64,000 nt of DNA from positions 558,001 to 622,000 of the forward strand of contig JANQPL010000004.1 in assembly GCA_028289425.1 (NCBI GenBank), read 5' to 3'. The notes beneath the pieces are model-generated. The model was given only the letters and a program-made list of their open reading frames with translations. It had not been told where the DNA came from and ran no database searches. Position 1 is the first letter of the stretch. The number at the start of each line of letters is the position of its first letter. The position numbers and the translations under genes were made by a program. Source of the stretch: Alphaproteobacteria bacterium (GTDB lineage: Bacteria; Pseudomonadota; Alphaproteobacteria; JANQMY01). Positions 3,684-42,723 of the stretch are shown piece after piece.

Positions 3684-5882
3684 TCAAGCGGATTTCGTGT
3701 CGATCTGTTCCTTTTGTGCCCATTGAGCCACTTTCTCGAAGAACAGGTCGAAATCGATGGGCTTGGCCAGATAGTCGTTCATACCGGCCTTGAGGTATTG
3801 TTCCCGGTCGCCGGACATCGTGTTCGCCGTGAGCGCAATGATCGGGATGGTGGACTGGGGCCCCCCTTCATTACGAATCTTGCGTGTCGCTTCGACGCCG
3901 CCCATTTCGGGCATCTGTCCATCCATTAAAACCAGATCGTAAGTCTGTTGGCGCACGGCTTTGATCGCTTCGAAACCGTTTTCGACAATATCCACCGTGT
4001 AACCTGCATTGACGAGCAAGGTCTTGAACAAAAGCTGATTGCTCACATTGTCTTCAGCCAACAGAATACGGCCGCTGGCAGATCCGTCGCTGATCGCGAG
4101 TGGTGAGGGGGCGTGTGTTTTGGGTGACGTGATGAAGGCTTGCGCCAGGGCGTCCGTGACGCATGTGTGGTGCAACGGTGCCGGAACAACAAGGTCGATG
4201 GGGTCATCGCCGGAGTCCGTAGCGAAACCCGTAGGGGAGTTCGCTATCTCTATGAATCTGGGGTGCGGGTTGTCCTCATCCCGCCGAAACGCCGCCAGTA
4301 GAGGCTTGGTATCGTCGGGCAGGTCCAAAAAGAAAACGGCCCCCACATCGTCGCTCGCAAGCAGGTCTTGGAAATTTGGACCGTAGTCCCCGAACCTGAA
4401 TGAAATGCCATAGGCTTGGAGCTGGCGTTCGATGATGGTGCGATGGATTCCAGGATCGCCCACCACCAATACCTGGCGGTCGTTCATTGAAGCGGGCACC
4501 GGATAGGTGGTCGCTGTTTCGCCATCCATGGTTTGAAGGATGACCGTAAACCAAAACGCACTGCCGCGGCCTTGCATGGACTGGACGCCGAGCTTGCCGT
4601 TCATCAATTCCACTAGATCTTTGCAGATCGCAAGGCCCAGTCCCGATCCGCCATAGCGCCGCGAGGGTGAGGCATCGGCCTGGGTAAAGCGGTCAAACAG
4701 GAATGGAATCTTGTCTTCCGGAATGCCGATGCCCGTGTCGACAACTTCGAAACGTAACTCGCACCGCCCTTCGTTGAGGGCCCGACTGGTTATGTTGAGA
4801 ATAACGCCGCCGCTGTCCGTAAACTTTACGGCGTTTGCGATAAGGTTGGTGAGCACCTGGCGCAAGCGGCCTGGATCTCCGCGAACAAGGGTAGGTAAGG
4901 CGGCGTCGGCAACAGCGCCCAAATGCAGGTTCTTTTCAGCCGCGGTTTGGCTGTTCAGCATGAGCACCTGGTCGAGAACGTCCGCGAGCTCGAAATCTAC
5001 ATTGTCGATGGTTAGGGCGCCAGCCTCAAGCTTCGAGACGTCCAATATATCGTTCACAATACACAGCAGCGTTTCGCCGGAACTGTGGATCGTCGATACC
5101 CAGGCACGCTCGTCCGCGTTCAGCTTGCTGTTGAGGGTGAGCCTCGAAAACCCGAGAATACCATTGATCGGTGTACGGAGCTCATGGCTCATATTCGCAA
5201 GAAAGGCGGTTTTGGCATCGGACGCCGCTTCAGCGCGAGCGACGGCTGCCTCTACATCCTGAAGACTGTTTTGGAATAGCCAAACGAAGCACAATGAGAT
5301 CACATAGGCGGACGTCGTCGCGGCAAAGCTGTAGAAGAAGAAGCGAATGTGCTCGACCGCAGGCAAGGCCGCCAACTCTTGCGGGGGCCAGTACAAAAGC
5401 CGGCCCAAAACAATCACCATCACTGCGGTCGTTGCCAAATAGGTCAGTGTGGAACCCTGACGGGATATGAGAAGCCCCGCAAGAACCGGCAACATGACGA
5501 TGATTGCGATCTCGGGCTCCCGAAAGCCTAGGTCAAACAGCGGTTCGGGAAAAATCGCCGCACAACAGGCAAGGATCGTTACCCAGCCCGCCAGGCGCAG
5601 CGATTTTGTGAAATAAAGGATCAATGGTGTGCTGAGCATGAGGAGCGAGGCTGTTCCTGCCACCACGACCATTGTTGCCGTCCCACCGGGACTATTGGCA
5701 TACAGCGACACGAGAATGCAGCCAAAAGTCCCAAAGATAGGCGGGCAAAAGGTAAGCAGGCGCGCGCGCACCAACGCCATGCGATCCGACGGATCGATGT
5801 TAAGACCAAGGACGCCATCGATGGACTGCATCAATCTTGCGCGCAAGGGAGTTCTCCGGCCAGCCTTTAGAAACCGAAGCAT
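3684..5882 (-). CDS. Hybrid histidine kinase with two receiver-like domains
   Basis: This is a 732-residue membrane sensor kinase. Six or so hydrophobic segments (about 45-205) precede HisKA with His233 (LANMSHELRTP) and an HATPase (DTGIGIPED, GGSGLGLAICKD). A receiver-like segment at 468-585 keeps an Asp in FFLDLPDD, but the acidic pair is reduced to VGDPG and the conserved Lys is replaced (VVPAPL). It is followed by an intact receiver with AEDNVSNQ, Asp654 in LMDGQMPEM and Lys in LAKPIDF. This double layout, with one degenerate and one functional receiver, is common in BarA/Evg-like kinases. It is divergent from the Tag-like gene's terminus and has no partner response regulator nearby. Confidence 0.92.
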   Translation of the reverse strand: MLRFLKAGRRTPLRARLMQSIDGVLGLNIDPSDRMALVRARLLTFCPPIFGTFGCILVSLYANSPGGTATMVVVAGTASLLMLSTPLILYFTKSLRLAGWVTILACCAAIFPEPLFDLGFREPEIAIIVMLPVLAGLLISRQGSTLTYLATTAVMVIVLGRLLYWPPQELAALPAVEHIRFFFYSFAATTSAYVISLCFVWLFQNSLQDVEAAVARAEAASDAKTAFLANMSHELRTPINGILGFSRLTLNSKLNADERAWVSTIHSSGETLLCIVNDILDVSKLEAGALTIDNVDFELADVLDQVLMLNSQTAAEKNLHLGAVADAALPTLVRGDPGRLRQVLTNLIANAVKFTDSGGVILNITSRALNEGRCELRFEVVDTGIGIPEDKIPFLFDRFTQADASPSRRYGGSGLGLAICKDLVELMNGKLGVQSMQGRGSAFWFTVILQTMDGETATTYPVPASMNDRQVLVVGDPGIHRTIIERQLQAYGISFRFGDYGPNFQDLLASDDVGAVFFLDLPDDTKPLLAAFRRDEDNPHPRFIEIANSPTGFATDSGDDPIDLVVPAPLHHTCVTDALAQAFITSPKTHAPSPLAISDGSASGRILLAEDNVSNQLLFKTLLVNAGYTVDIVENGFEAIKAVRQQTYDLVLMDGQMPEMGGVEATRKIRNEGGPQSTIPIIALTANTMSGDREQYLKAGMNDYLAKPIDFDLFFEKVAQWAQKEQIDTKSA

Positions 5883-37342: not shown

Positions 37343-37392
37343 GCCCGCTCTGAGCGGGCATCAAAAAAGGGAGCCAATGGCTCCCTTGTTTT
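37343..37392. terminator. Double hairpin, bidirectional terminator
   Basis: GCCCGCT-CTG-AGCGGGC (37343-37359) and GGGAGCC-AAT-GGCTCCC (37369-37385) stand side by side, and the second is flanked by A6 and T6 tracts. It can end transcripts from either side. On the minus strand it lies directly after the tandem microproteins. Confidence 0.8.
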
Positions 37393-37441: not shown

Positions 37442-37525
37442 TTATCCAAGAAGGAGGAAGGGCTGGGCCAATACCAATGTGACCGGGGCGAAAAAAGCGG
37501 CATTCAGGAAGTTTTGCGTGTTCAT
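37442..37525 (-). CDS. Microprotein B (27 residues), FAPVT...QPF type
   Basis: This short open frame reads from an ATG at 37525 to a TAA at 37442. GAGGA lies 7-11 bases upstream, a normal ribosome site. The product is hydrophobic, with a core FAPVTLVLAQPF, and matches microprotein A beside it at 9 of 12 core positions. Codons for the shared core differ mostly at third positions, which shows selection on the protein. It may insert in or sit on the membrane. Function is unknown. The double-hairpin terminator follows about 50 bases downstream. Confidence 0.72.
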   Translation of the reverse strand: MNTQNFLNAAFFAPVTLVLAQPFLLLG

Positions 37526-37556
37526 TGTCGTGTCCTCGAAAATAGCGGGTTGTTCG

Positions 37557-37649
37557 TTAGATCATGGCCATGAAAGGTTGAACCAAAGCCACCGTTACGG
37601 GGGCAAATACGGCCAGGTGGATCATGGCTTGGCGCTTAATGGTTTTCAT
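37557..37649 (-). CDS. Microprotein A (30 residues), FAPVT...QPF type
   Basis: This short open frame reads from an ATG at 37649 to a TAA at 37557, with GGAGAG 5-10 bases upstream. The product starts MKTIKRQAM with three basic residues, followed by a hydrophobic stretch carrying FAPVTVALVQPF. Microprotein B, 31 bases downstream, shares the core, so the pair arose by duplication. A leader hairpin with a GCGA tetraloop lies upstream. The basic N-terminus and single hydrophobic segment suggest a small inner-membrane peptide. No known family was recognised. Confidence 0.72.
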   Translation of the reverse strand: MKTIKRQAMIHLAVFAPVTVALVQPFMAMI

Positions 37650-37670
37650 CGTCTCTCTCCGTTTGGTTTG

Positions 37671-37684
37671 GTGTCTCGCGACAC
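37671..37684 (-). promoter_or_regulatory. Leader hairpin of the microprotein operon
   Basis: In the minus-strand transcript GTGTC-GCGA-GACAC is a perfect 5-base-pair stem with a GNRA tetraloop, ending 21 bases before the ATG of microprotein A. It may stabilise the leader or affect ribosome loading. Confidence 0.4.
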
Positions 37685-37813
37685 TGCACATGTGGGGGAC
37701 GAGAGGCCGATTTCATGTGACCTACGCTACACCCACGATGCGGCATAGCGGTTCAAGGGCTGATTAGCGGCAGAATGTGTCAGGGGTCACATTTTTTGTG
37801 AGAATGGGCGCTT

Positions 37814-39496
37814 TTAGGGCCGCAAGGCGTCCGCCAGTGGTGCCAAATGCTTCTCGAAGTGACGCCAGCGTCCAACGGAACTTTTATAGACCGGGCGCCT
37901 GACTTGGGCGGCGCTTGCCGTTTTGACAGATCGTTTTGTCTTATGAAAATCGAGGCAGTGGTCTTCCCACGGCAGACCGCAATGGTCGATGAGCTGCCGT
38001 GCGCTCTGCTCAAGATCGGAAACCACGTCTTCATACGCCACATCAAGCATAACGCCCGACGGCAATACCTGCTTCCAGTGGGCCATGAGCCGCTCATATC
38101 GCCTATATTCTCGTGCGAGGTCGTTCAAATTGTACGAAAAAAGCTGACCGTCCCGGAACAACTGAGCGTAATTTGAAAAGCACACGTCCATTGGGTCGCG
38201 GGTGCAGTGAATGATTTTGGCGTTTGGCACTATGATTGGTATGAGGCCGAGGAGATAATGGTTGGACGGCATTTTGTCCGTGACGTGCCGACTTTCAGCG
38301 GATAATTGGCGCTGTCTTCGAATGTACTCTTCCCCCATTTCTTTCTTTTGAGCGTCTGTGAGACGTGCGGCCAGTTCCGGCAGGGCCTCCCGCCGCTGTG
38401 GAATAAGGCTTTCGTTGTAGACGTCATTAAGGTGGGTTTGCTCGCCGCCACCGTATACAGACGAATGGGAGGCCAAGATCTGTTCGATGAGCGTGGTGCC
38501 GGACCTTGGCATTCCCACAATAAAGATGGTTGTGTTGTCTAAACATCCCAAATCGGGATAGCCCTTGATGGCGTCGGGACCAAAGTTGCGGATCGTTCTT
38601 TCGACAAAATCCTCATTCCGTTTTTCGTCAAACGGATGGGCGGCACGATAGATGTCGTTTCCTTTGCGATAGGCTTCAAACGCTTCATCAAAACGGCCGA
38701 CATCTTCGTAAGCCTTGCCAATTGTGAACCAAAGGGACTGAGCGTTGGCAGGCGCCATCTGTTCGGCTTTTTGTGCTAACGCTTCAATGTTTTTGACGAC
38801 GTCATCATCCTGTGTGAACGTCTTCAAATTCGACAGGCTGAACAGCGGTTCCGTATATTCAGGATCAAGCTTGATGGCCTGTTCAAGATGTTTCTGTGCG
38901 GTTTCCAAATCACCCTGCATAAATAAAGCATTGCCGAGTTCGGAATGGAGCACTGCCTTGTCCGGGTGCCGTTTCAACAGATCCTCTAGAATGCTTACAG
39001 CTTCATCTACCTTACCCAATTGCCGTTTTAGAACGGCCAGCGCTGTGAGGGATTGATCATGATGCGGATCGAATGTGAGTGCCTTTTCAATGTGCCCCAC
39101 CGCTTCTTTCCGGGCGCCCAGATCCATTAACACCAGACCGAGATTGCAGTGGCTTTGGAGGTCTTGTGGAGCCAATTCGACGGCGCGTGATGCCACCGAG
39201 GCTGCCTCTCTCAGTTGGCCGCTCTCATGCAGGATACGGGTAAACTGGTGAAGATGGTTCACGGTTGTCGGAGATAGGCTGCAGGCCTGTCCGGCAAAGT
39301 GCACGGCCAGATCTTGCCGTCCGCTTTGACGCGCAATAAGCCCCAGCAGCATGAGCGCCTGGTGGTTCCGCGGATTGTTGTCGATCAGGTGCCGGCAGAT
39401 CTGTTGAGCGGTTGCAAGATCGCCGGCTTGAAAAGCGTCGGATGCCTGTTGAAGTTGGCTTTCGGGCGTGCCGCTGTTTCCACTGTTTGAACTCAT
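37814..39496 (-). CDS. TPR-sulfotransferase fusion protein
   Basis: This 560-residue protein has about eight tetratricopeptide repeats in its first 300 residues (for example HCNLGLVLMDLGARKEAVGH), then a sulfotransferase domain. The PAPS-binding loop FIVGMPRSGTTLIEQIL lies near residues 325-335 and the 3'-phosphate-binding segment is IIHCTRDPMDVCFS. It has no signal peptide. Such fusions transfer sulfate to peptides or glycans in other bacteria; the TPR part probably holds the acceptor. The neighbouring exopolysaccharide locus 8 kb away and the sulfatase at 17 kb make a sulfated-glycan link possible, but this is inference. Confidence 0.87.
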   Translation of the reverse strand: MSSNSGNSGTPESQLQQASDAFQAGDLATAQQICRHLIDNNPRNHQALMLLGLIARQSGRQDLAVHFAGQACSLSPTTVNHLHQFTRILHESGQLREAASVASRAVELAPQDLQSHCNLGLVLMDLGARKEAVGHIEKALTFDPHHDQSLTALAVLKRQLGKVDEAVSILEDLLKRHPDKAVLHSELGNALFMQGDLETAQKHLEQAIKLDPEYTEPLFSLSNLKTFTQDDDVVKNIEALAQKAEQMAPANAQSLWFTIGKAYEDVGRFDEAFEAYRKGNDIYRAAHPFDEKRNEDFVERTIRNFGPDAIKGYPDLGCLDNTTIFIVGMPRSGTTLIEQILASHSSVYGGGEQTHLNDVYNESLIPQRREALPELAARLTDAQKKEMGEEYIRRQRQLSAESRHVTDKMPSNHYLLGLIPIIVPNAKIIHCTRDPMDVCFSNYAQLFRDGQLFSYNLNDLAREYRRYERLMAHWKQVLPSGVMLDVAYEDVVSDLEQSARQLIDHCGLPWEDHCLDFHKTKRSVKTASAAQVRRPVYKSSVGRWRHFEKHLAPLADALRP

Positions 39497-42594: not shown

Positions 42595-42723
42595 GGGGTC
42601 AAATGTGACAGGGGCTGGTGCGCTTCGCAATTACCTTTCAAGTAATGGCCTCTATTCAGCCCGTTTTTGACGCAGATCAATGTTTGGCACCGCCAATGGG
42701 CCCAAATTACGCCCACATGCTGG

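What the first reader, a model, noticed from the sequence alone, without database searches (positions are those of the whole stretch)
37442..37649. Two tandem unannotated microproteins sharing an FAPVT...QPF core
Two minus-strand frames of 30 and 27 codons each have their own ribosome site, lie 31 bases apart and share FAPVT-x2-L-x-QPF. The nucleotides behind the shared residues differ mostly in third positions, the mark of protein selection. They end before a bidirectional terminator and follow a leader hairpin. I know of no family with this signature.
Basis: partly seen in the sequence, partly recalled or inferred. Interest (0 to 1): 0.8.

Follow-up and report, generated by a model that had tools for sequence, protein, structure and literature searches.

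The report
Twin membrane microproteins, CRP-type promoter
Two tiny neighbouring genes encode a matched pair of 27- and 30-residue, probably membrane-spanning peptides that natural selection has preserved in two related alphaproteobacteria behind a promoter with two CRP-like switches; what the peptides do is not yet known.

Summary
ORF1 (37557-37649, 30 aa) and ORF2 (37442-37525, 27 aa) each have a Shine-Dalgarno site, lie 31 bases apart, share FAPVT-x2-L-x-QPF, follow a hairpin and precede a two-way terminator. The only other held genome of the genus (G001, a MAG) has the orthologous pair at the same place plus a second, paralogous pair whose ORF2 is split by a repeat element. Between orthologues, 27 of 33 base differences are third positions; pooled dN/dS is 0.045, like the flanking YeiH-type gene (0.049) and peroxiredoxin (0.067). 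New here: all three modules carry two CRP-type palindromes exactly 60 bp apart upstream (0 of 20,000 joint shuffles), and the same box precedes a CRP-family regulator gene in both genomes. No Pfam, NCBIfam, PHROG, PADLOC or PDB match; full-length profile matches occur in these two genomes only. Best reading: a lineage-specific, CRP-regulated pair of single-span inner-membrane microproteins, probably acting together as accessory or regulatory helices. Coding and promoter are well supported; membrane location is predicted; partner and function are inference. Type I toxin-like or secreted peptides remain possible; a leader-peptide attenuator is unlikely.

The parts
37557..37649 (-). ORF1, 30 aa microprotein (ATG 37649, TAA), basic N-terminus then one hydrophobic span with FAPVT..L.QPF
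   Evidence: orthologue L032:5561-5653 and paralogue L032:2776-2859; dN/dS 0.079; single helix predicted, pLDDT 84.7
37442..37525 (-). ORF2, 27 aa microprotein (ATG 37525, TAA), no charged side chain in the window copy, one hydrophobic span with FAPVT..L.QPF
   Evidence: orthologue L032:5684-5767; 14 synonymous and 3 nonsynonymous differences; interrupted paralogue from L032:2891
37657..37660 (-). Shine-Dalgarno of ORF1 (GGAG within GGAGAGAGA, conserved in 3 of 3 modules)
37534..37537 (-). Shine-Dalgarno of ORF2 (GAGG; AGGA and AAGGAG in the two G001 modules)
37671..37684 (-). 5'-leader hairpin GTGTC-GCGA-GACAC; GNRA-type loop kept in 3 of 3 modules (GCGA window, GGAA module b, GCAA module a)
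   Evidence: not more stable than shuffles
37690..37696 (-). CCCACAT, conserved in 3 of 3 modules, candidate -10 region about 20 nt after the proximal CRP-type site
   Evidence: role inferred
37716..37731 (-). Proximal CRP-type palindrome TGTAGCGTAGGTCACA (8 of 10 consensus bases; 10 of 10 in module b)
37776..37791 (-). Distal CRP-type palindrome TGTGACCCCTGACACA (9 of 10), exactly 60 bp from the proximal one, as in both G001 modules
37367..37387 (.). Two-way intrinsic terminator (9-pair stem), closes the transcription unit
   Evidence: z -3.09 for the stretch ending in this stem

Best explanation
A self-contained transcription unit (two CRP-type sites, short leader with a hairpin, ORF1, ORF2, terminator) makes two related single-span membrane microproteins from one mRNA. 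Shown by sequence: both frames are under protein-level purifying selection; the module is conserved, and the congener has a second one; two CRP-type palindromes lie 60 bp apart upstream in all three modules, the proximal one about 20 nt before a conserved -10-like CCCACAT, the layout of a CRP promoter with one site near -41.5 and one near -101.5. Inferred: the CRP-family protein whose own gene carries the same box (L097 in G000, L089 in G001) activates the unit when its effector, probably a cyclic nucleotide, is bound; the peptides insert into the inner membrane as two helices with a central Pro, meet each other through the shared face (APV...QPF), and act as accessory or regulatory helices on a larger membrane protein (a transporter or respiratory complex), as other microproteins of this size do. 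The partner is unknown; the neighbouring YeiH-type exporter is only a candidate.
For: Orthologous pair in G001 between the same peroxiredoxin and YeiH-type genes. Pooled dN/dS 0.045 against 0.049 (YeiH-type) and 0.067 (peroxiredoxin) from the same contig pair. Second module in G001. Two sites with at least 8 of 10 bases of TGTGA-N6-TCACA at spacing 60 in 3 of 3 modules; 0 of 20,000 joint shuffles had two or more sites in all three; in the window 20 of 63,985 positions reach that score and only this pair lies 55-65 bp apart. The same box precedes the CRP-family gene in both genomes, TGTAGCGAAAGTCACA and TGTAACGGCGGTCACA; that protein has cNMP_binding and HTH_Crp_2 domains and shares the RETV segment with solved CRP-family proteins. 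Hydropathy of the best 19-residue window 1.85-2.11; one helix, residues 3-29 of ORF1.
Against: No partner, localisation or expression data. Only two genomes, and the three modules are homologous, so not independent samples. One G001 copy of ORF2 is split by an element, so that copy at least looks dispensable. The CRP consensus and the class III layout are recalled; sites were first seen by eye and then scored. Other CRP/FNR proteins exist in G000 (L098, L099). The window's ORF2 has no charged residue, so its topology is open. An RpoH-like reading of CATGAAA-N13-CCCCACAT was considered and not settled.
Confidence: 0.5

Rival explanations
1. Type I toxin-like pair: short hydrophobic peptides that depolarise the membrane when induced, held down by an antisense or structured RNA.
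For: Length, hydrophobicity, tandem paralogues, narrow distribution, own terminator, variable copy number between two genomes.
Against: No + strand promoter-like site over the unit and no + strand terminator-like stem between 37388 and 37950 in a simple scan; leader fold not unusual; purifying selection as strong as in the flanking genes; two CRP-type sites suggest activation on demand.
Confidence: 0.17
2. Secreted signal or bacteriocin precursor pair released after cleavage near the conserved QPF.
For: ORF1 has a basic N-terminus followed by a hydrophobic stretch like a signal peptide; two-peptide layout.
Against: Almost nothing would remain after a signal-length stretch (7 residues from Q in both frames); no exporter, protease or immunity gene recognised among the 8 neighbouring window proteins scanned.
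Confidence: 0.08
3. Leader peptides of an attenuator controlling the downstream YeiH-type gene on the same strand.
For: The terminator sits between ORF2 and the YeiH-type gene on the same strand in the window and in module b of G001.
Against: In module a of G001 the unit is followed by a convergent GST gene, so there is nothing to attenuate; selection is on the whole peptide sequence, not on a run of one amino acid.
Confidence: 0.04
4. Chance open frames in a conserved small RNA or intergenic region.
For: Very short frames.
Against: 27 of 33 base differences to the orthologue are third positions; no frameshift; starts, stops and SDs kept.
Confidence: 0.01

Closest known systems
Small single-span membrane accessory proteins of bacteria such as AcrZ, CydX, KdpF, MgtS (recalled)
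   Same: About 30-50 residues, one predicted transmembrane helix, own SD, easily missed by size limits
   Different: No sequence family match; two paralogous peptides in tandem; no neighbouring partner complex recognised
Type I toxins such as Ibs, Ldr and TisB (recalled)
   Same: Short hydrophobic peptides, tandem copies, narrow range
   Different: No antisense gene seen; CRP-type promoter; two different conserved peptides on one presumed mRNA
Tandem light-harvesting alpha/beta peptides (pufBA; recalled)
   Same: Two small membrane helices encoded side by side
   Different: About half the length, no histidine kept across copies, no photosynthesis gene among the 8 window neighbours scanned
Class III CRP-dependent promoters of E. 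coli (recalled)
   Same: Two TGTGA-N6-TCACA-type sites, one near -41.5 and one about 60 bp further up
   Different: Start site unknown; regulator would be an alphaproteobacterial CRP-family protein of unknown effector

Membership tests
Protein-coding gene under purifying selection | Excess of synonymous change between orthologues | tested here: met
   pooled dN/dS 0.045
Any Pfam, NCBIfam, PHROG or PADLOC family | Profile match | tested here: not met
   0 families at E up to 10
Solved small membrane subunits | Sequence match to a PDB chain | tested here: not met
   0 at E up to 10
Single-span membrane microproteins | Hydrophobic helix of about 20 residues | tested here: met
   hydropathy of ORF1, ORF2 and the module-a ORF1, helix 3-29 of ORF1; actual insertion not testable here
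Single-span membrane accessory proteins | Binding to a defined membrane complex | not testable with these tools
   needs pull-down
Type I toxin-antitoxin | Overlapping or adjacent antisense RNA gene | tested here: inconclusive
   simple promoter/terminator scan finds none over the unit; no RNA-seq
Type I toxin-antitoxin | Toxicity on induction | not testable with these tools
   needs an expression assay
CRP-dependent promoter | TGTGA-N6-TCACA-type sites in activating position | tested here: met
   two sites at 60 bp in 3 of 3 modules; position relative to a start site and binding not shown
Light-harvesting alpha/beta peptides | Conserved bacteriochlorophyll-binding histidine | tested here: not met
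   no invariant His in 5 aligned peptides
Attenuator leader peptide | Regulated gene directly downstream of the terminator | tested here: not met
   same-strand gene downstream in 2 of 3 modules, absent in module a of G001

The most novel reading that the evidence does not exclude
A new kind of two-component membrane microprotein: an obligate hetero-oligomer of two paralogous 27-30 residue helices, co-produced from a CRP-controlled mini-operon that duplicates as a unit, forming its own pore or a two-helix regulator of a bioenergetic complex in an isolated alphaproteobacterial lineage.
Probability: 0.25. Interest if true: 0.6.

Novelty: new variant of a known kind. Interest (0 to 1): 0.42.

Why it matters
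It adds a clearly selected, unnamed microprotein family near the lower size limit for a gene, found as a paralogous pair with a defined promoter architecture. The strict 60-bp arrangement of two CRP-type sites gives an immediate handle on when the peptides are made, and so a way to find what they do. It also shows how such genes can be supported from only two genomes.

Tried and rejected
Chance frames: rejected by orthologue comparison. Upstream in-frame start at 37691 (44 aa): rejected, because the two extra bases in module a of G001 before the SD break that frame. Wider homologues: the genome contigs pattern scan gave 21 stretches; one (L063, JANQMY010000457.1, the same contig as G001:C489, with 3 matches) is real; in the other 20 the surrounding residues do not resemble the family (the nearest in kind, L068, is a 22-residue frame with an unlike middle). 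One viral contig match lies inside a frame of about 200 residues. Profile search of 385 class genomes at E up to 0.1: 21 hit, of which 19 are weak (E 0.0015 to 0.1), nearly all partial and mostly inside longer frames, and were judged chance without reading each; the repeat at E up to 0.01 drew what looks like the same set and hit 4 of 385, two of them such weak ones. Phylum sample: 2 of 398, one the window's own and one weak in a 1000-residue frame. Plasmids: no match for ORF1; phages: one weak match (E 4) for ORF2; the other two combinations were not run. DNA search of 59 genomes: 40 had some match at E up to 1, but only G000 and G001 have long matches. Rfam: only a snoRNA model far below its cut-off on the other strand. 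RpoH-type promoter: upstream regions of the Hsp20 genes of both genomes were read and gave no clear shared promoter, so this is not settled. A first box pattern with one N too many gave no match and was corrected.

Literature: full-text searches for FAPVT or 'small protein' (the five papers listed showed no FAPVT), small membrane proteins with Crp and tandem, type I toxin with tandem and alphaproteobacteria and CRP with small protein gave nothing on this family in the listings; no paper on it was seen. These listings and one set of passages are all that was read.

Full report
What is there. On the minus strand ORF1 (37649-37557) encodes MKTIKRQAMIHLAVFAPVTVALVQPFMAMI and ORF2 (37525-37442) encodes MNTQNFLNAAFFAPVTLVLAQPFLLLG. 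Each has an SD, the gap is 31 bases, a hairpin lies in the leader at 37684-37671 and a two-way terminator-like stem at 37367-37387. The two peptides are related beyond chance (score 60; shuffles mean 17.1, sd 3.6, 0 of 5,000 as high).

Orthologues. The window lies on contig C3 of a 5.4 Mb genome (G000). A DNA search of 59 genomes gave long matches only in the genome itself and in the one other member of the genus, G001 (E 6e-41 and 3e-12). G001 contig C489 is JANQMY010000457.1, 'Alphaproteobacteria bacterium isolate PL25b_bin.64' (same length and match positions as the contig fetched). PL25b occurs as a sample name in a paper on Porites lutea coral skeletons, PMC9868349 (passages only); that the MAG comes from that study is inference. 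G001 is 97% complete with 10% contamination, but synteny with the window ties this contig to the genus. G001 holds module b (L032:5561-5653 and 5684-5767), between a peroxiredoxin and a YeiH-type gene, as in the window apart from a TPR-sulfotransferase gene that only the window has between peroxiredoxin and pair, and module a (ORF1 L032:2776-2859, ORF2 from 2891), between an XRE-type regulator and a GST gene. In the window the same XRE and GST genes (83% and 82% identical) end about 40 bases apart with no module between them. So the unit was gained or lost as a whole.

Selection. Window against module b: differences by codon position 2/1/13 and 1/2/14, stop codons included. NG86 dN/dS: ORF1 0.079, ORF2 0.016 (synonymous change near saturation), pooled 0.045; yardsticks on the same contigs: YeiH-type 0.049, peroxiredoxin 0.067. 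Module a is more diverged (ORF1 dN/dS 0.49 against the window and 0.32 against module b), and its ORF2 is split after FAPVT by an insert of about 150 bp flanked by CTAG, whose relatives give 63 matches in G000 and 75 in G001, so it is a common repeat element. The 3' part beyond the insert reads LVLAQPFLLLG, as in the window's ORF2. At least that copy is probably dispensable.

Promoter. All three modules have two palindromes of the type TGTGA-N6-TCACA upstream of ORF1: TGTGACCCCTGACACA and TGTAGCGTAGGTCACA (window), TGTGACCAAGCGCACA and TGTGACACCGGTCACA (b), TGTGACAACGGCTACA and TGTAGCGGCGGTCACA (a), scores 9/8, 9/10 and 8/8 of 10, always exactly 60 bp apart. In dinucleotide shuffles of the three 180-nt stretches, 58, 41 and 11 of 20,000 had two or more sites, and none had them in all three at once. 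In the window 20 of 63,985 positions score 8 or more and only this pair lies 55-65 bp apart. The modules are homologous, and the threshold was set after seeing the sites, so the shuffle result shows non-random sequence, not three independent events. The proximal site is followed after about 20 nt by CCCACAT, conserved in 3 of 3, which would put the sites near -41.5 and -101.5 (start site inferred, layout recalled). A pattern TGTRRCNNNNGTCACA hits 6 places in G000 and 8 in G001 (8 and 11 strand matches; reversed controls 1 and 3). Three of these 14 places are the proximal sites of the modules and one is the distal site of module a. One in each genome lies, from the box centre, 42 or 60 nt before the gene of the same CRP-family protein (81% identical), which has cNMP_binding and HTH_Crp_2 domains (G001 copy) and the RETV segment of solved CRP-family regulators. 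That regulator is the best candidate, but two further CRP/FNR relatives exist in G000 at 24-25% identity. The other 8 places were looked at only by listing nearby frames.

Leader. The hairpin keeps a GNRA-type loop in 3 of 3 modules (GCGA window, GGAA b, GCAA a), but its folding energy is no better than shuffles (z -0.62, 0.33, -1.35). A role in mRNA stability is inference.

Product. Best 19-residue hydropathy is 2.01 for ORF1 and 1.85 for ORF2. AlphaFold2 on ORF1 with its 4 relatives gives one helix, residues 3-29, mean pLDDT 84.7, pTM 0.34. Seven columns are invariant in the 5 complete peptides: A, APV, QPF. ORF1 has a basic N-terminus (positive-inside rule, recalled, would place it in the cytoplasm); the window's ORF2 has no charged side chain.

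Distribution. No match in Pfam, NCBIfam, PHROGs, PADLOC or PDB sequences. Profile search: of 385 class genomes only G000 and G001 have full-length matches of significant score (one search repeats what looks like the same set), and of 398 phylum genomes only G000. An exact-pattern scan of the 84,980-species collection found only the G001 contig among 21 stretches; this would miss more diverged relatives, and the tool says that the window's own genome may be left out.

Mechanism and rivals. I favour a CRP-activated pair of inner-membrane helices acting together as accessory or regulatory subunits. Type I toxin-like action is the main rival, with no antisense gene seen in a simple scan. A leader-peptide attenuator for the YeiH-type gene is unlikely, because module a has no such gene downstream. 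A secreted signal is possible but little peptide would remain after cleavage. None of the functional readings is shown.

Verdict. The finding is real and the family appears undescribed in what was searched. It is a new family of a known kind of thing, small single-span membrane proteins, with an unusual paired layout and a strict two-site CRP-type promoter.

Noticed in passing
window 42667-42680: TTGACGCAGATCAA, an FNR/FixK-type box (motif recalled), lies upstream of the Hsp20 gene and is kept upstream of the Hsp20 gene in G001.
   Followed up: partly
L032:2940-3090 (G001) and many places in G000: A short repeat element, about 150 bp with CTAG at both ends in this copy, gives 63 matches in G000 and 75 in G001; one copy splits the paralogous ORF2.
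   Followed up: partly
L090 (G000:C14:201740): The same CRP-type box precedes a 52-60 aa frame with a basic C-terminus, with a second box-like TGTGCGCGGCGTCACA upstream; possibly another small protein of the regulon.
   Followed up: no
L111 (G001:C556:672): A TGTAACCGGCGTCACA box with a further box-like palindrome upstream, followed by GGGAGAGAGACC-ATG like the leader of the pair; the frame behind it is unclear.
   Followed up: no
window 37814-39496: A TPR-sulfotransferase gene lies between peroxiredoxin and the pair in the window but not in G001.
   Followed up: no
L032 near 1630-1660 (G001 Hsp20): The G001 Hsp20 frame has a stop codon soon after the start that corresponds to the window's gene start (read by eye).
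   Followed up: no
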